Shown here in pieces: positions 22,943 to 33,916 of a DNA stretch of 64,000 nucleotides (positions are counted from its first letter, which is position 1; each line of letters starts with the position of its first letter). Position numbers and translations under genes: made by a program. The notes beneath the pieces were generated by a model. It saw only the letters and a program-made list of their open reading frames with translations, was not told where the DNA came from and made no database searches. The DNA is from Ziziphus jujuba (Eukaryota; Streptophyta; Magnoliopsida; Rosales; Rhamnaceae): the NCBI RefSeq assembly GCF_031755915.1, contig NC_083388.1, positions 13,156,501 through 13,220,500 on the forward strand. Direction: 5' to 3'.

Positions 22943-25900
22943 TTAGTTCAAGTTTTGGTGCTGTCCCACCTCTGCGGCCATTTCAATGTCTACAGGGGAA
23001 GATGAAACTACAACTTGTTGGAATTCATTTTGGCTAATTTCTTGATGTTTTTGATGATCAATCTCTGTTTCACTGGAAAAACTAGTGATTTCCCCAAAAG
23101 TTTGCGGCCGCGGTCGGCGATGAGAGGATATATCAGGAGAACTCGAGGACGTGACACTGCTGTCTACAGTAGTAGAGGAAGGGTCGTGAGCATAGGAATA
23201 TTGAGAAAAGTCTTGTCTTTTCCTTTTCTCTTTCACTTCTGAATGCCATTGTCTTATTATGTTCATGGTTTCCCCTTCTAACACTGCACGCTTGAAATTT
23301 GATCCCATCTATACATTTTTGTGTGCGTAATAAACAATTAATGGCAATTGTAAAATACCCAATAATGTAAATATGTGATACTAAATTGAAAATTGAAAAA
23401 TTATATGTTATTATTATATATATGTATAATAAGCATGATATAAATTAAACATTTCACTGGTATTTTATTATTACTGAGTTATGATAATAAGTAACATTAT
23501 CTGTTATGATACATAAATAATGTAAGATAATATTTACCTGGGTCACAAGAGCATACAGGGGAAGAGTAATGTAACTGCACATTATTTGAACTGTCACCCT
23601 GATAAAATTAACCAACACAAGATGTTAAGTTATCAGCAGACCTGTTAGACATAGGGTGTTGTGTGTATGCATCCACATTTTATAAAGTATTTTTATTTGA
23701 TTATTATTATTATTATTATTTTGTGCTGGAAACACATTTTATAAAGTAGCTGGACTTCATCATAGCTGCAGTAATCAGTACCTAACTAATGAGTAAATTT
23801 CTAGTACTCTGGAAACTATATACTCCATATTCTTAAACAGGGGATCCATTTCATTGTAAGTGTGAAATTAATACATACTTGAGAGAATATTATAGCTGTT
23901 TTACCAATGAAGATGTCAATTTAATTTAATTTTTTTATTACTTTAAATTTTGTCTTCTTTTAATATACTTTGATGATTACATTAAAAAAATATATATATA
24001 CGTTGATAGAGTGCAAGCAACTTATCTTGTATAATGAACTTTAGTTTTTTTTTTTTTCCATGAAAAACATTATTTCTCACCATATTAGATTTTTCATATT
24101 AAAAAAGCAAAAAATAAAAAATAAAAAATGCAGCAAATAAATATAATATGGTACATTAGTAGAGAATCCTACTGCTAATGGTTATTAGTGGTAAAAAAAA
24201 AAAAAAAAATAGCGAAAATTCTTTTTTGATATTTAAATCTTTTAAAAACAACTTGTGGTAAATTCTTAATTTACGAATGACATGTAGGAGGTACTTAAGA
24301 AAGAGATAGGATTGAAAACTTACGCTAACACCACCCTTATAATGATAATCCCTTTATGTTCATGGTAGCAAGATCTTATCCCATATTGTACCTAAATATG
24401 ATTTGCAAACAGAAGAAGTAATAAATTAATGAGAAAATATTTCCTTTTCTATATGATTAAAATGATTATAAAGCTAACCGAAAATGTTTCCCAAAATTAG
24501 ATGCAGAAAGACAAATAAAGACATACCGTGACCCAAACAAAGAAAGCAAGCTCAAAAGCATTCTGGCAAGAAATTAAATTAAGGAAACCATTAATAAGAT
24601 GGATCATAGTGGTACTAATAATGATCAGTAAGATCAATTATGTCTATTTTGATTAGTGAGAAAGGATTACCATAAACAAGGTGAAATGCAAAAGAGTCAA
24701 AACGAATTTTGGGTGGCCGAACCAGAAAAGGTCATCATTTGGTTCAACCAAAGGGGTTCCTGCAACCACGCTGTGCTGGTTCTGGAGTTTAAGAGCCATT
24801 TTTGCCACGATTACTTCAAGTTTGGTTCCAAGAACGAGCACCATCTATGAAGCAGCACAATTGGCATTAATATTATAACCAAGCAAAAAAATTAATGTTT
24901 AAGCACTTAATTATTAATTAAGCGATCAATAAGTAGTAACCAGCAAGAATGGTTAAATCTGAGCACATACTAATAGGGGGATGAATGAAACCCAGAAATA
25001 CACATGCCACCCTGTTTCAGTTGATAATCAAATACAATTAGTTACAATTAGTTAGTAATTAATTGATTAATTGTTTTGTTATTGGGAATTAATATTTAAG
25101 GGGAAATCAGAAAAAATAATATATGAGAAATTTTCACTAACCATGCACGTCCACAAGCATGAAGATGACGACTATAAACCACATGAAAGGGCTAGAGAAA
25201 ACACAAGCACCAAAACATATAAATAGATCGACAAGTAAATAATTAAATTGCTATATACTAAAGGGAGAAAAATAGGACGAGAACAAATTAGATATAGATG
25301 CCGGAAAAAAAAAAAAAAAAAAAAGATATTGAAATAGGAATTTTTGTATGTATTTACAAACCTGATGCCAACTACAACTTTGAAATCATCCTCCAAGGAT
25401 CGTTGTATGTACTTTTGGAAATTGAAAGATTTGCTTGTTGACATATGGGCCTGCAGAGTTTGGAAAAGGGGAATTGAGCCCAATACCCTCCAATATCGGT
25501 GGATAAGGATGTTTACCTTTCTCTGATTAGATTTTTTAAATTTACCCTTTAATTTCAATTTTATCCTCAATAAAAACATAAAATTACTTTGTTTTTTTTT
25601 TCCCCCTTCTTCCGAGACGGCTCACAATCCCATTGAAAAAGGCCCGCAAGGGTTTTCCTTTCCTATCTTCATCCGAGGAGGAAATTGGCTTGGACTGGTG
25701 GAACCGATGAAAAAATTAGTGTTGAAGGTTTTCCTATGACAAAGCCTTCATGGAGGAACTTTGAGTATGCAGAGCTTGCGGCTGCTACTGGACGAGTCGG
25801 TGGAGATAGGGGCTGTCCAGGGGGGAATTGTCGTCGGCGGCGGCGGAGAGGGGGAAGGGGATGTCGGAGGAGGAATGGGGAGGAGGAGAAAGAGGGGATA

Positions 25901-28900
25901 AGGAGGAGAAAGAGGGGATAAGGAGGAGTCCATGAGCTCGAGGAAGTTACCGAAAATAGTGAGGGCAGAGGAGGGAAGAGGAAGCAAAATGAAAACAAGA
26001 ATTATAAATTGCTTTCCAAATAATTTTTAAAACAAAAAACAAAAGCAAAGATTGGAGAGCTTAAAAAAGGACTGAAAAGAATGACTTTGGATTTTTCTAA
26101 ATATATTTTGGTTTGAGCAGTTTCTCTGTCTGGTCGGCAATCCGAAGTGAAGGCTACAATAAACTTGAACGCAATGAATCAAGCTCCCGACGCATGGCAT
26201 CTCTCATTCTCATGTGCCAGAGGTCTTCAAAACAACTGCCTGAAGAAATGGGGAGGCATAGCTGAGAATGTGAAGAGAGATAGTGAGAAGTAGGGGAATG
26301 GGAAGTGTGGTGAGAAGAAGAAGAGGAAGGAGCAAGGAGTTTGTTTTAGACTTGCTCGCCGACCAGGAAAAATGGTGAGAAGAATAGTTTTTGCTCTTGG
26401 TTTTTCTCTTTCTTGATTTTATTTTTAAAAAAGGATAATTTAGGAATTTAAAAAAATAAATGGGTAAAACAAAAAATATGTAAATGGAGTGGGTAATTTT
26501 TATGATACCGTTTAAAATAGGGGTATTGGATCAAATTCCTTTGGAAAAAGAGACGGTGCAACATTTCATATATGTTTTGATAGTTTGGGACTACCAGAGA
26601 TTTGTTCACCAAATAAATGATGGTTGGTACGGTTTAATTAGTAAAAAATGGGCTAAAAACTAACCGAACTTAACCATCATCCAACTCCAACGAAAATGTA
26701 AGGGATAGTGGTTATCGTTCATTTTGACTATTCGTTCATCTTTTTTAATTAATGAAGCCGGTATTAGAAACTGTCATAATAAAACTATAAATTAGAATAT
26801 ATTTTAGCCAATTAATATTAAGAAATCAGTGTATTCATTTATTTAGTCAATGAAATCTGTATTTTCTAAAAATGAATTTCATAAAATGAGAAACTCGTAA
26901 GATGAAGAATGATTATCATACTCATTGATATGAAAATTTAAAAAATAGTGAATAAATACTAACCGATATGAAACCATGGCGTAAAGTGAGGTAATCAACT
27001 TTTGCCACTGAATGGAAAAATTGCCGGAAGAAGCATTTCTGTATGACACAAGAGAAATTTGTATATTAAAAGCAACATAAATTCTTTCCCTTTTCTTTAG
27101 AAATAACAAAATAATGCTCAACAAAGAATGAGATCATCGAATGGACTCACAATCCACAGAAGAATAGATGTTTTGGCGCAAGAATTCATGTGTCGGCGAC
27201 CAAATGTAGTTTGTCTTGTAAATCTGAATCGATTAGGATCTAATCGAAGCGTTATGATGAAAAAAGAAAAAAAAAAAAGAGTGCTTAGATCTTATATATT
27301 TATTACAAACAAAACAATAATTTTTTTTAAAACAAATTATTTAATTATAAACTATCCAAAATTTTCTGTATAAGAAGCTAACCTTCTTCATCAATAAAAT
27401 AAAGACTTGAAACAATTATTTTTTGTTGTGACAAGATTAATATATATATATGTATATATATCATGTGTACATATGTGTTATGCATTTTTGTTGGTATTGT
27501 TTTTTCTTAGCAGGCAAATTTGGTTAATTATTTATTTTATATGTTGTATTTTCCTTGATAATCTGTACCAATTTTAAATGTAAAGTTGTTTTTTTGTTTT
27601 GGTTTTTTATGACATATACTTATATTAAAAGATTAGTAACCAACTTACACAAAATTAAATAGGAAAACAGAAAATAAAAAATCAACTTGTTATCAAATGA
27701 CATCTACTTATGATTACTTTTATTGTCTTATCATGTTCCTTATTTATACCATCATAAATTGATTTTGAACCGGGAAATTGATACAAGTTAATAATTTTAT
27801 AAATTTTCTTGTAGTTATATGCATACCAAAGAATAATGACCCTTTATAATTAGCTTTGTTTAATTTCCCCCTGTTGGTGTTTTGTTTTTTATATTCTTAT
27901 AAATTTACTATTAAATGCCGTCCATATGACTATGAAAAAACTCTTTAAGAAAATTGACACCATATAAAACGATAAAAGATGCATAAAAATAAAAAATCAG
28001 AGTCAAATTTTGCCACTCAATTACATAAAATCAATCTTTCAAAATAAATGAATAAATAAAAAGCGGAGTGATGAACTGAAAGTCATGTTTACGTGCAAAA
28101 TTAATTAGTTATGTTGTAATTTGACTTCTAGAACTGCCGACAATCATACAGAAAGTTTTATATTTTTGAGCTTCTTAAAACCGATAACAGGGAATTGACA
28201 CATGATGAGGAAGTAGAGACAAAGTTAAACACTGTATGGGTTTATATGTTAAATTATCATTGATTTTAAAATTTTTGTCAGAAAATGAATTTGCAATATA
28301 TATTAAATTATTTTAATATATTTTTTTAAATTTTAATATCATATTAAATTATTATTGATTCCAAAACTGTGAAGAATTGATTTTATTATGTATATCAAAT
28401 AATATTAATAGTTCTTACCATTAGCCACTTGGTATTCCACCGTTTGAGTTTCCATCTCCCAAGATTTCCAACGTCTCATCTATATAAATACAAAATATAC
28501 ATCAACATTAATGACAAATAAAAAGTTATTGGGTTGATTTCAACTATATCCCTCAAGGTTGACTTAAATATAATTTTGTTATTTTAGTTTAAAAAATATC
28601 ATTAACTTTTTCTTATGTTTCAAAAAATCAATATGTTACTATTATAAACTATTACTTCATTTGCATGCTCCTAATAATATCATCTCTTTTTTTTCATTTC
28701 ATGATCCTGGCTTGGCCCCTCTCTCTATCAACCATCACTTCCCTGAATCAAAATCTGGATCTTCCTAAGCAATTTGGATTAACCACTTATTTGGAATATG
28801 TCATCTAGTTTTATCAATCTGGTTTGAAATTTAATTTAAATATAATTTAGTTTCAAAAATATCATCAACTGTATCTTAGATTTCAAAAAAGTTATCATTT

Positions 28901-31900
28901 TTCCCTCATATTATTTCATTTACACCTTTTTGAACTAGTATTATCTACATTCCCTTATGAATGCTAGTTGTAATTTTCAAAATATAACAAATTAAGTTGT
29001 AATTAATGCAAATTTTAGAAGATCTAAATATAATATTTCCTTTTCAAAATTTAAAATATTAAATTGTAATTAATATAAACTTTATAGAGATGTGGAAATA
29101 TATCCAAAAGTTATATCACTGATTTAGTATTAAAAATTTATATATTTTTTTTATTAACAATGCATTCGGGTTCTGATTTTATTTTATTTTATTATTTTTT
29201 TTTGTGTGTATAAGCTCTTGTTTATTGATACCATCTCATTTTAACAAAAGTGCATATTTACTAGTGGTTCCCCACCCCCCCCCCCCCCCCCCCCCCCCTC
29301 TTTCTTTTTTTTTTTTTTTTTTTTTTTGGCTTTAAATTTTTTTAGAGCTAAAAACATTTACTTGACCAAATAAGCATTTGACAGTATGTTTGGCAAAAAA
29401 TAAAATAGTACTTTTTGAATTGAAAAAAAAGAAGAAGTATTTTTATGTGCTTATTCTCCAAGACCAAAGTGTTTCATGTTTTAATTAAATCATTAACGCT
29501 TAAAAAATTTTCTATTTGACTTTCAAAAGTATTTTTTTTATGATTTTTAACCAAACACCTTCGTGCTCTATTTGAAAAGTGATATCAGAAGTATTACAGT
29601 GAGTGCATTCCAATAATTGTTTAATTTAAAAGGGCGGGGAGTGTGATTCCAACGTGCTATTTTATGCTATAATGAATTGAAGCACTACTAAATACACCCT
29701 AAATTACACTTCTAATTAAGTTACATCTTACTAAAAGTTACACCTTACCAAAACACTTGTACAATACTCTTGTTCAAATAGTTCAATTTTAACTTGTATG
29801 GATTTTTGTTTCTTTTTCAGTCAACAATTTGTATGCAAGTTGACTGTATAGATCCTATGAATTGGACATTTATTAACAACAACAATATGTCCACTTGAGA
29901 GGAGTTTTTGATATAATATATAAAATGCAATTCTGATGGACAGATCCTTGTAATGAGGGAATGCCATTTGTTCCATGTTTAAATCTACTACATATTAGCT
30001 AATATGCTCAAGTATCAAAATTAGATCTTTTCAAAAACTAAATATTAGCTAATGCTAAATATTCAATCTTTTATCTCTAATTTTGGTTTAAAAACTTCTA
30101 AATATAAATTAGTAACTAATAAATGTACCTGAGAAGACTGTAATGCTATTTGTATATACACTTTGAATTATTAAAACGCAGGTGAAGAGATAATCTATAT
30201 CCATTAACTATAGCCCATGCCACTAATTTGATTTGGCATAAGATGGGATCTTACTATACTACATATTTTTTAATCATTTAATTTTTTTCGCTCGGATGGA
30301 CCCGCAGTTCTACTTGTTATTCATATACATATATAATTAAGCGCTTCATTTAATTTCCAAGATAGTAAAGTTCATGTTTGTCAAAATAGAAAAGAAAAAA
30401 ACAATAAATAAATAAATAAAGTTCACAGCAAATTTTTGATTAAGATCAAAGTCATCTAAAAGCATCTTCAATAATTTTGTCTATTATTATTTTTTCTACT
30501 ATATTAGAAAGTTTGAGAGTAGTTCAAAAAAAAAAAAAAAAAAAAAAATTCTAATGTCTAAACACATGGTAAAAGAAAATACTTGACTGTCAAGGTAACC
30601 ATCATCTGCTAGATTGTTAAATTTCTTTTAAAGTAATTATTTTTAAATAATTAAATTTTTCTTAAAAAGTTATTTAAAAAAAATTAATAAAATATATTTA
30701 ATTAAATAGTAATCATAAATAACCTGATACATATTATTATTAGAAAATAATTTTAAAATTAACTATATATTTATACTATCTAAATTTAGATAATATTAAA
30801 TTTTATATAATATAGACAGCAATCTACATTTGTTATTAAATATAGTGAAATTTTCTAGTCTAATTAAACAATTGAGAAAAGGAGAAAAGTGTATTTTTTT
30901 TCGTAAAATCCAGAACAGGAGATATCGGTTGCCCTTAATACTCTAGGAGTCAACTGGGCAAGGAATTCATCGGTAGGGAGGTTGTTTTATGTGCTTCCTC
31001 AACACCTTTTACTTTTATCAGGGGAAGAATTACATATATGCCATTTTCAATACAAAGAAACTATACTTGCATGGTTTGAAAATGGTAAGCTAGATAATGA
31101 TCAAACAGCCGTACTTTAAAAGGATGTTGCAAAAAGAGACCTGGATGGTAAATAGGTTTAGGTGAAATATGCATACCTTGGCCCTTCCTAAAGCCATGGT
31201 GAGGACACTGTAGACAATTTGCATAATTGCTAGCACAAAGATGAAGTTGTTGAGCTGATTTATTCCATCTTGTGACATAAACGAAGTCTTTCCCTGCCAT
31301 TTGGTCAATATGGCTTAACTTAGAGAAAAGGGCCAAAAAAACTAACCAATTCAAGGACTTCAATGCATATAATAAATACCTGGGATTCACAGTAATCAGA
31401 AGTACTTGAACTAGATTCTGCCAATCTTCTTTCTGATCCCAAATAAAAGTCCTCAAACACATCTTTCATGGATAACGAATTCTGAGCCGCGGCAGCACTA
31501 CTGGTCCACGGCCGCGAAATTAAACCAAGTGCTTTCGTAGTTTTAGTCGATGAACTTTTCCGGCATGGTAGCATGGTTTGCCCAACTTTGGTGGGTATGC
31601 AAATCCTGGAGATTGGTCTTTGAGTTACGGCCAGTATCAGAGACATGAACCCTAAGAGCATAAGCACTGCAGTCAACACCCAGCACCCCCCCAAACAAAA
31701 AAAAAGAAAAAAAAAAAAAAAAGGTAGTTAAGATTAGGAGAAACATATTATAGCCATTATTATTTATTGAAATGATTAACATCCATATGGATTCGTCAGG
31801 AGAATTAGAAAAAAAAAAATGGCCGAAACCTACCTGATTTGAGCTTTTCTACGGCTTCAAATAAAGCAGCCTTCCTGTGTCTCTTGAGCCACTGCACCAA

Positions 31901-32130
31901 ACACCAAAAGGTGTCGAATTAAAATCCCATAAATGTCGAGCATCGCCCATCTGCTCTGATATATATATATATTTGCTGTTTTGGTTTAATTTTCTTACGT
32001 TAGAAAGTAGATGGATCAAGTGCTCCACGAAAATTGAGAAGGAAATGAAAACAAAGCAAACTGTTGCCAGAGCCCATGTGGGTGTGTATTGCAGAGAAAG
32101 AGATTGTCCTCCTGATGATCCTCCGGCCAT
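22943..32130 (-). CDS. MLO-like seven-transmembrane protein, 15 exons
   Basis: Exons, in coding order: 32130-31999, 31891-31834, 31666-31380, 31293-31177, 28479-28419, 27239-27151, 27038-26964, 25450-25362, 25191-25142, 25011-24971, 24844-24671, 24562-24527, 24391-24324, 23598-23538, 23308-22943. Every border has GT/AG and phases join, giving 567 codons plus stop. MLO proteins sit in the plasma membrane with seven helices and a cytoplasmic calmodulin-binding tail; recent work describes calcium-channel activity. Family marks are TPTWA near residue 17, LMLLGF at 65-70, [14 protein letters not shown] (222-235), [26 protein letters not shown] and [17 protein letters not shown]. The tail has W467 in [13 protein letters not shown], the expected calmodulin site. 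The clade V tail motif [D/E]-F-[S/T]-F is absent (DFSQ instead), so a mildew-susceptibility role cannot be claimed. Exon 13 ends may be off by one base. Introns 4 (2.7 kb), 5 (1.2 kb) and 7 (1.5 kb) are enlarged. Confidence 0.95.
25459..26548. mobile_element. Mutator-like (Pack-MULE type) element in MLO intron 7
   Basis: The element is 25468-26539 (1072 bp). It is flanked by a perfect 9-bp duplication, TTTGGAAAA (25459-25467 and 26540-26548); 9-11 bp is the hallmark of Mutator elements. The ends are inverted: ggggaattgagcccaatacc on the left against ggaatttgatccaatacccc read from the right, with weaker pairing further in, as in plant MULE termini. No transposase is present, so it is non-autonomous. 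The interior includes a GC-rich, gene-like segment (25690-25930). It lies only 17 bases from the start of MLO exon 8. Confidence 0.8.
25685..25930 (+). pseudogene. Captured gene fragment inside the MULE, kinase-like lead-in
   Basis: The plus-strand frame contains [16 protein letters not shown]. This resembles the stretch before the kinase domain of plant receptor-like cytoplasmic kinases (WRNFxYxELxxATxxF). It then runs into a GC-rich, arginine- and glycine-coding tract containing two copies of aggaggagaaagagggg. No kinase catalytic motifs follow. Proline-rich open frames on the opposite strand are shadows of this tract. The kinase link rests on one short block and is an inference. Confidence 0.4.
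29275..29327 (+). repeat. Poly-C then poly-T tract in MLO intron 4
   Basis: A run of 24 C (29275-29298) is followed after a few bases by a run of about 20 T. It lies inside the 2.7-kb intron 4 of the MLO gene. On the transcribed (minus) strand this is an A-rich run followed by 24 G. Confidence 0.9.
29372..29561. mobile_element. MITE-like element in MLO intron 4
   Basis: The left end (gtatgtttggcaaaaaata) pairs, with mismatches, to the right end (tgatttttaaccaaacacc). It is about 190 bp with no coding capacity. The ends resemble the hAT-like MITEs elsewhere in the window. No convincing target duplication was found. Confidence 0.4.
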
Positions 32131-32200: not shown

Positions 32201-33916
32201 TGTACTACCAGGACCAGAGAAGAAATATTCAAAATTTCAGTGCAGCTAAGACTTTGGACACGGATAGATATAGTCCATGCAAATTTTCTGGTGGAGGTCC
32301 TATCCGGAAACCCCATGTAGTTAATTTGACACGGTATATTAAATTCTTTATATGGTTCAAAACGTAGCCAACCATAAATAAAAGCAGGGTCGCGGTACTT
32401 ACATGGTTTGGTAGGACCAGGTTTTTGCTTTGAAACTTTTGCCTTTGTGTTGCACAATTGGCTTAGTTGACCGTAGCGGTGAGTCATTTATGTTCCCTCA
32501 ACGAATCATATCTCTTGTTTCATTTTTTGTCCTCTTTTACATCCCTCAAATAAGGACGGAACAGAGGATCTGAATCTTCTCCGGTCTAAAAGTTTTTTGT
32601 GTACAAGGGCGGAAATTTACAGGTTTCATTTTATTTTTATTTGAGAATTACTAGTGAGTTTGGATTGGACCCGTGGAAAATATGGTTAGACTCGTAAATT
32701 GGAGGGCAACAAGAGGTAAGCAGGTGGTGGTTAAGACAGAGAATCCAAACAGGTCCCATGTTGAGCATTGCAATTGGAGGTTGCTAGTCATCTCTATGAG
32801 CCATAGGAATAAGTAAAAGATCCAAAAACTTGAATTTTGGATGTTACACTTCTTTGCCTTTCTTCATAAGATAAATTACATGGGATCTCAACGGACCAAA
32901 GTGTCAATCTAATTCTGAATTATCAATAGAGACTCCACCATGAAAATATTGTCCTCACGCTGGAAATGGTATTTCATATGTATACATACATATATATATA
33001 TATATATATGTATGCAACCACAGTTGTAAGATAAAAGACTGGCATACACTCAGAATAAGTTCTTTTCAGGTCATCGCAATTTTTTTTTTTTTCAGGTGCA
33101 GCCTAAAAGGAACAATTTATAATCAATGCCCAAGTTGAAAAAAAAAATAATAATAAAAAAAAATAAAAAATTAAGTAAATTCATGTAGACTTTACAAAAT
33201 AATTATTTAATGTAAGATTACGACTTGGAAGCGATTTGTGACAGTCTTTCAATTATGCGTGGTTGGAATCGTCTACTTGGGTTTGCCATTGGATGACGTT
33301 AATCAGGCGGATTTACTCCACCTATACAAGTCCCATGACATAAATGTCCAACCACCAGTTTTCAAAAAAATCTCAAACCCATCAGCTACCAGATCAATCT
33401 CACTTGCAGGCTTATCATTAAGCTTCTTGTTCCCGCCATAGGCAATGTTCGTTCAGTTTTTTGCCTTTTTTTTCTTTTGAAAACGATCTTTCAGATAATT
33501 GATCTGTACTATATTTTATATTTGATACTAGTCATGCATGCGAAATTATAGGGACTCCTAAGCTTTGATTAGGAACAGAGAGGAAAGGGATCCAAATTTC
33601 AACTCTCCGTTCTTTGTTGAAGGTAGTCTTCCATTTCCAAGTTAATAGGAGCATAGCCTCATTCCCATTTACGAATCGACTGACCATATAGCTTCTAACT
33701 TTAACATATATATATATATATAGATACGAAAACAGAAAAAGCTATTTTAGAAATTTGTATAATTGTTTTGATCATCAAATGGGATATCTGTTTAATATAC
33801 ATAACAGAGAAAACATTGCTGTATGCTCCAAATTGAGCAAGCAGTCAGATTTTTTTGTCCTAGCGAAAGGACTTGTCTAATTGCAGAAAGAACACACACA
33901 CACACACGGGAGAAAA

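What the first reader, a model, noticed from the sequence alone, without database searches (positions are those of the whole stretch)
25362..26548. Pack-MULE inserted at the 3' splice site of MLO intron 7
A Mutator-like element with a perfect 9-bp duplication (TTTGGAAAA) ends 17 bases before MLO exon 8, where the polypyrimidine tract and branch point normally lie. The nine duplicated bases keep ttttccaaactctgcag at the acceptor, but any branch point must now be inside the transposon end. Correct splicing would mean the MULE terminus supplies it. Failed splicing would skip exon 8 (89 bases) and break the frame, a natural loss or reduction of MLO function. MLO alleles with transposon insertions are known to change mildew response in other plants.
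Basis: partly seen in the sequence, partly recalled or inferred. Interest (0 to 1): 0.75.

Follow-up and report, generated by a model that had tools for sequence, protein, structure and literature searches.

The report
Transposon squeezed against an MLO exon
In jujube, a mobile element carrying scraps of two other genes sits 17 bases before an exon of an MLO family gene, and database versions of this gene's protein either keep or drop the three exons that follow it; it is a new example of known transposon-and-splicing biology, in a gene branch not tied to mildew susceptibility.

Summary
A 1,072-bp Pack-MULE (25468-26539) with a perfect 9-bp duplication lies in intron 7 of a minus-strand MLO gene and ends 17 nt before exon 8. 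Other copies in the genome (apparently Ziziphus jujuba) end at the same borders, and it carries fragments of an aldolase gene and a protein kinase gene. The MLO gene itself is intact: 15 exons, 567 aa, identical to NCBI's 'MLO-like protein 3 isoform X1'.

New: NCBI isoforms X2 (jujube) and X3 (var. spinosa) lack exactly exons 8+9+10, the three exons just downstream of the MULE. They total 180 nt, so the frame is kept and 60 residues with one membrane helix are lost. None of 17 isoform-labelled relatives listed from other species shows this, but four unlabelled models from other plants do. So causation by the MULE is likely, not shown.

The mildew reading is weak: MLO3 is clade VI, while known dicot susceptibility MLOs are clade V. 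The branch point, if the acceptor is used, probably lies in the MULE end. No RNA reads, other accession or empty site could be examined.

The parts
25468..26539 (.). Pack-MULE, 1,072 bp, inside MLO intron 7
   Evidence: Borders shared with other genome copies; flanked by 9-bp duplication
25459..25467 (.). Target-site duplication copy next to exon 8 (TTTGGAAAA)
   Evidence: chance estimate
26540..26548 (.). Target-site duplication copy on the exon 7 side (TTTGGAAAA)
26117..26293 (+). Captured fragment of a class I fructose-bisphosphate aldolase gene, antisense to MLO
   Evidence: PF00274, 58.2 bits, E 7.9e-16; best solved relative chloroplastic aldolase 1, E 4.4e-16
25671..25790 (+). Captured fragment of a protein kinase gene, antisense to MLO
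   Evidence: 95% over 120 bp to G000:C7:15624651-15624770; the downstream exons of that locus match Pkinase PF00069 and PF07714
25362..25450 (-). MLO exon 8 (89 nt), first of the three exons absent from isoforms X2 and X3
   Evidence: (PF03094, 39.9 bits)
25142..25191 (-). MLO exon 9 (50 nt), absent from X2 and X3
24971..25011 (-). MLO exon 10 (41 nt), absent from X2 and X3
26964..27038 (-). MLO exon 7 (75 nt), upstream partner of the skip junction
24671..24844 (-). MLO exon 11 (174 nt), downstream partner of the skip junction
25451..26963 (-). MLO intron 7 (1,513 nt with the MULE; 432 nt without it and one duplication copy)
25472..25478 (-). Candidate branch site CTCAA in the MULE end, A at -25 from exon 8
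   Evidence: Consensus scan with recalled weights; a paralogue has CTCAA at -26
22943..32130 (-). Whole MLO3 coding region, 15 exons, 567 aa
   Evidence: 100% to P0001

Best explanation
A non-autonomous Mutator-like element that had captured pieces of an aldolase and a kinase gene inserted 17 nt upstream of exon 8 of jujube MLO3 (shown). It kept the AG and the last pyrimidines through its target duplication but pushed everything further upstream 1.1 kb away, so that a branch point at normal distance must now come from the MULE end (inferred; candidates CTCAA at -25 and CTTAT at -54). The new acceptor works only part of the time. When it is missed, exon 7 is joined to exon 11, dropping exons 8-10 (180 nt) in frame; products that skip a non-multiple of three would be frame-shifted and probably degraded. 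The result is two protein forms: a full 567-aa one and a 507-aa one that lacks 60 residues including one transmembrane helix, which probably cannot keep normal membrane topology. Both forms are annotated; that the MULE causes the skip is inferred.
For: Element, duplication, family and captures. Intact 15-exon gene equal to X1. X2 equals X1 minus exons 8-10 exactly, and X3 has the same junction plus a 32-aa N-terminal extension. Among 17 proteins of other species with a visible 'isoform X' label in the lists, none lacks exons 8-10; 16 cover exons 7-11 fully and one (P0152) lacks exon 9 only. Skipped exons are the three directly after the MULE intron. Intron 7 of six jujube paralogues measured is 94-449 nt, against 1,513 here. 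Precedent: 3 of 14 NF1 Alu insertions lay in the polypyrimidine tract of an acceptor and 1 in its AG, all with skipping of the downstream exon (PMC3219598, passages).
Against: Four models from other species show the same skip: P0121 Quercus suber, P0122 Actinidia rufa, P0124 Morus notabilis, P0173 Gossypium australe, so it may be a general MLO splice form or model error. The empty site rebuilt has a weaker best branch-site score (3.4) than the MULE-bearing one (5.0 at -54, 4.5 at -25), which does not fit simple damage by the MULE, though the displaced flank may have drifted since. The donor after exon 8 (GTTTGT) is itself weak and could favour skipping. No reads were seen: that NCBI isoforms rest on RNA evidence is recalled.
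Confidence: 0.6

Rival explanations
1. Joint skipping of exons 8-10 is an old, low-level splice form of MLO genes, or follows from weak exon 8 signals (donor GTTTGT); the MULE is a neutral passenger in an intron that tolerates it.
For: The same junction appears in models from Quercus suber, Actinidia rufa, Morus notabilis and, for an MLO6, Gossypium australe. Skipping all three is the way to keep frame here (89+50+41 = 180). The MULE end offers branch-site matches as good as or better than the rebuilt empty site.
Against: 0 of 17 isoform-labelled proteins from other species have it. It is found in both jujube taxa listed, exactly behind the inserted element.
Confidence: 0.27
2. The short isoforms are annotation artefacts: the predictor could not bridge or score the long MULE intron and short exons, and one true transcript (X1) is made.
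For: Exons 9 and 10 are only 50 and 41 nt; gene models elsewhere lose parts of exons 8-10 in other ways (P0131, P0138, P0147, P0151, P0152, P0156, P0163).
Against: The same exact, in-frame junction is annotated in two taxa (P0002, P0003).
Confidence: 0.13
3. One reading: exon 8 alone is skipped, the frame breaks, and MLO loss alters mildew response.
For: Exon 8 skip would give a 312-aa product. Transposon-disrupted MLO alleles with mildew effects exist in cucumber and pea (PMC4600303, passages).
Against: No such product among the proteins listed, although degraded or frame-broken messages would hardly be listed. Full-length X1 is annotated. The gene is MLO3, clade VI; PM-resistance MLOs in dicots are clade V, and an MLO3 construct did not restore susceptibility in Arabidopsis, though its GFP signal was not reliably detected there (PMC13360292, passages).
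Confidence: 0.06

Closest known systems
CsaMLO8 transposon allele of cucumber (PMC4600303; passages read)
   Same: A non-autonomous element in an MLO gene goes with aberrant splicing; both reported losses (72 and 174 bp, 24 and 58 residues) keep the frame, as the 180-nt loss here does.
   Different: There an LTR element sits in exon 11 of a clade V susceptibility gene and segregates (27% of resequenced accessions); here a Pack-MULE sits at an intron's 3' end in a clade VI gene, and no empty allele is known.
Alu insertions into acceptor sites of human NF1 (PMC3219598; passages read)
   Same: Element lands in the polypyrimidine tract just before an exon and the downstream exon is skipped.
   Different: Disease alleles with skipping of the downstream exon(s) shown on cDNA; here a fixed-looking plant element, both inclusion and a three-exon in-frame skip annotated, no cDNA seen by me.
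Pack-MULEs (recalled; one listing, PMC5664825, not read)
   Same: Inverted ends, 9-bp duplication, captured fragments of host genes, no transposase.
   Different: Position directly at a splice acceptor; the aldolase and kinase pieces lie antisense to the host gene.

Membership tests
Pack-MULE | Target-site duplication of about 9 bp (8-11, recalled) | tested here: met
   Perfect 9 bp in the window; 3 of 6 other copies have 9 bp, one of these with a mismatch
Pack-MULE | Terminal inverted repeats shared by a family | tested here: met
   19 nt at 79% in this copy; L011 has both ends matching GGGGAATTNGRCCCAATRNCCC without mismatch
Pack-MULE | Captured fragments of host genes with donors in the genome | tested here: met
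   Aldolase piece with 6 of 15 genome matches outside element copies, 55-72% identical; kinase piece 95% to its donor gene
Pack-MULE | Mobilised by a MULE transposase with matching ends | tested here: inconclusive
   The genome has at least 150 scored MULE transposase matches, but none of the 30 fetched loci, which reach 1.5 kb on each side, bears the ends at 4 mismatches or fewer; genome-wide end search did not complete
MLO family | Mlo domain (PF03094) and intact reading frame | tested here: met
   exon 8; 567-aa frame; P0001 carries PF03094
MLO clade VI (AtMLO3 group) | Closest named relatives are MLO3 | tested here: met
   Many of the 120 listed relatives are named MLO-like protein 3; no tree was built. 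Clade VI for MLO3: PMC13360292, PMC5865747
Clade V mildew susceptibility MLO | Falls with MLO2/6/12 | tested here: not met
   By name and similarity it is MLO3; no tree was built
Transposon-induced exon skipping | Transcripts skip exons in the insertion allele and not in the empty allele | not testable with these tools
   Skipped isoforms are annotated; no empty allele or reads available

The most novel reading that the evidence does not exclude
The MULE terminus supplies a working but leaky branch point, turning a once constitutive junction into a frame-preserving three-exon switch. Jujube MLO3, wild and cultivated, now makes a full seven-helix protein and a shortened one lacking a helix, so that a transposon end has become a standing part of the gene's splicing control.
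Probability: 0.25. Interest if true: 0.6.

Novelty: new member of a known kind. Interest (0 to 1): 0.42.

Why it matters
It is a clean natural test of how a splice acceptor survives when a DNA transposon replaces everything beyond the last 17 nt. The prediction is concrete: the lariat branch should map inside the MULE end, and the 7-11 junction should drop when the MULE is absent. It also shows how in-frame multi-exon skipping can soften an insertion, similar to the in-frame losses in cucumber CsaMLO8. It does not, on present evidence, explain mildew response in jujube.

Tried and rejected
Exon 8 skip alone as the main outcome: computed (frame breaks, 312 aa) but not seen among listed proteins. 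MLO as a mildew susceptibility gene: set aside because MLO3 is clade VI. Cryptic acceptors in the MULE end: AGs at -37 (out of frame), -66 and -72 (in frame) noted; no protein form using them was seen. Autonomous partner: 30 transposase loci scanned for the ends, none found; flanks were only 1.5 kb. Branch-site scoring uses weights that I set from a recalled consensus; it favours the MULE end over the rebuilt empty site and is not decisive. 12 of the 13 other MLO3 introns and 7 of 7 paralogue acceptors score 4.6 or more, intron 2 only 1.6. Papers: no jujube study of this gene was found in two searches; of PMC10299734 I saw passages only, which report MLO genes down in phytoplasma-diseased jujube without identifying this one. 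Searches for Pack-MULE or Mutator insertions and exon skipping gave nothing close. (bacterial promoter scan upstream of the gene) was irrelevant to a plant and is not used.

Full report
What is there. The window lies in a 394-Mb genome at C10:13156501-13220500. The MLO gene on the minus strand reads as 15 exons from 32130 to 22943 with no stop before its end, 567 aa, and is 100% identical to a protein that NCBI names MLO-like protein 3 isoform X1 of Ziziphus jujuba. I infer the species from this; the genome itself is unnamed. Jujube is in Rhamnaceae, Rosales.

The element. TTTGGAAAA is repeated at 25459-25467 and 26540-26548. Between them lie 1,072 bp. A genome search gave 49 matches to the 1,187-bp query, a lower bound since only 40 of 283 candidates were scored, with the longest ones ending at the same borders. 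Of 6 near-full-length copies, L011 and L014 have perfect 9-bp duplications, L012 one with a mismatch, and L009, L010 and L013 none found. The copies show GGGGAATT...AATTCCCC ends; the window copy lacks the last two C. Over aligned bases the window copy is 93.6% identical to L009 and 84-87% to the other five. A matching 9-mer pair at such spacing arose in 95 of 200,000 random placements.

Captured pieces. 26117-26293 encodes 58 residues of class I aldolase (PF00274, 58.2 bits; chloroplastic aldolase structures first among 43 matches). In the genome this peptide has 15 matches, 9 in copies of the element including this one and 6 elsewhere, at 55-72% identity. 25671-25790 is 95% identical over 120 bp to a locus on C7; the fragment itself has no Pfam match, but two open stretches downstream of the donor match Pkinase and PK_Tyr_Ser-Thr. 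Of the copies aligned, L009 and L010 also carry the kinase piece and L011-L014 do not. Gene capture, inverted ends and 9-bp duplications together make it a Pack-MULE; a transposase source with the same ends was not found in 30 loci.

The splice site. Exon 8 starts at 25450; 17 nt separate it from the MULE. The last 17 nt, ttttccaaactctgcag, hold no A far enough from the AG for a usual branch (general knowledge). With branch-site weights that I set from a recalled plant consensus, the MULE end offers CTTAT at -54 (5.0) and CTCAA at -25 (4.5). The rebuilt empty site reaches only 3.4, while 12 of the 13 other introns of the gene reach 4.6 or more and intron 2 only 1.6. Seven paralogue acceptors reach 4.7 or more, one of them with CTCAA at -26. 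Intron 7 in the six paralogues where it could be measured is 94-449 nt. So the MULE end can plausibly serve as branch region. The low score of the empty site may mean that the acceptor was weak before insertion, or that the displaced flank has drifted. This is against a simple story of damage.

The isoforms. NCBI's isoform X2 of jujube (507 aa) is exactly the first 273 residues of X1 joined to residue 334 onward; X3 of var. spinosa (539 aa) has the same junction and a 32-aa N-terminal extension. Residue 273 ends exon 7 and residue 334 begins exon 11. The missing exons 8, 9 and 10 are 89, 50 and 41 nt: none alone is a multiple of three, the sum is 180. Exon 8 alone skipped would give 312 aa. 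The missing 60 residues hold a strong hydrophobic segment (298-316) and the first part of the next. They are better conserved (76.9%) than the whole protein (66.4%) in 142 relatives that cover both well enough.

Control. All 173 proteins from the two searches (120 listed each, out of 3,856 and 653 matches) were aligned to X1: 159 cover exons 7-11. Besides X2 and X3, the same loss is seen in P0122 Actinidia rufa, P0124 Morus notabilis and P0173 Gossypium australe (an MLO6), and by eye in P0121 Quercus suber, which the pairwise aligner placed otherwise. Eight others have different gaps around here. Of 17 proteins from other species with a visible 'isoform X' label, none has the loss; 16 are complete there and P0152 lacks exon 9. 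Labels are cut in the lists, and sequences are clustered at 90%, so isoforms could be hidden. The control favours a jujube-specific effect but does not prove it.

Function. MLO3 is clade VI (PMC13360292 and PMC5865747, passages). The same 2026 paper states that all MLO genes whose impairment gives mildew resistance in dicots are clade V. Its MLO3 construct did not restore mildew growth in the triple-mutant background, but its fluorescence was not reliably detected, so that is weak evidence. No claim on mildew in jujube follows.

Comparison. Closest in gene family is cucumber CsaMLO8, where an LTR element in exon 11 goes with in-frame losses of 72 and 174 bp (PMC4600303, passages). Closest in position are Alu insertions at NF1 acceptors, 4 of 14, with skipping of the downstream exon (PMC3219598, passages). 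The case is a new member of a known kind, with two less usual features: the element is a Pack-MULE, and the annotated skip takes three exons at once and keeps the frame.

Verdict. Observation confirmed; interpretation partly supported. Most likely the MULE makes the exon 8 acceptor leaky and the gene yields full and three-exon-skipped forms (0.6). What is shown: insertion, family, captures, gene model, annotated isoforms. What is inferred: branch point in the MULE, causation, loss of function of the short form.

Noticed in passing
window 32404-32487 (-): The N-terminal extension of var. spinosa isoform X3 matches an upstream open frame here that begins MTHRYGQLSQLCNTKAKVSKQKPGPTKP, suggesting an extra 5' exon spliced just before the usual ATG.
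   Followed up: partly
window 25468-26539: The captured aldolase and kinase pieces lie antisense to the MLO transcript, so MLO pre-mRNA contains antisense sequence to parts of two gene families.
   Followed up: no
window 25881-25920: A perfect 20-bp tandem duplication inside the MULE that the six other aligned copies lack.
   Followed up: partly
L010, L009, window: The kinase piece is present in three aligned copies and absent in L011-L014, so the family has at least two capture states.
   Followed up: partly
window 28418-31177: Intron 4 of the gene is 2,697 nt and intron 5 is 1,179 nt; other insertions may lie there.
   Followed up: no
   Followed up: partly
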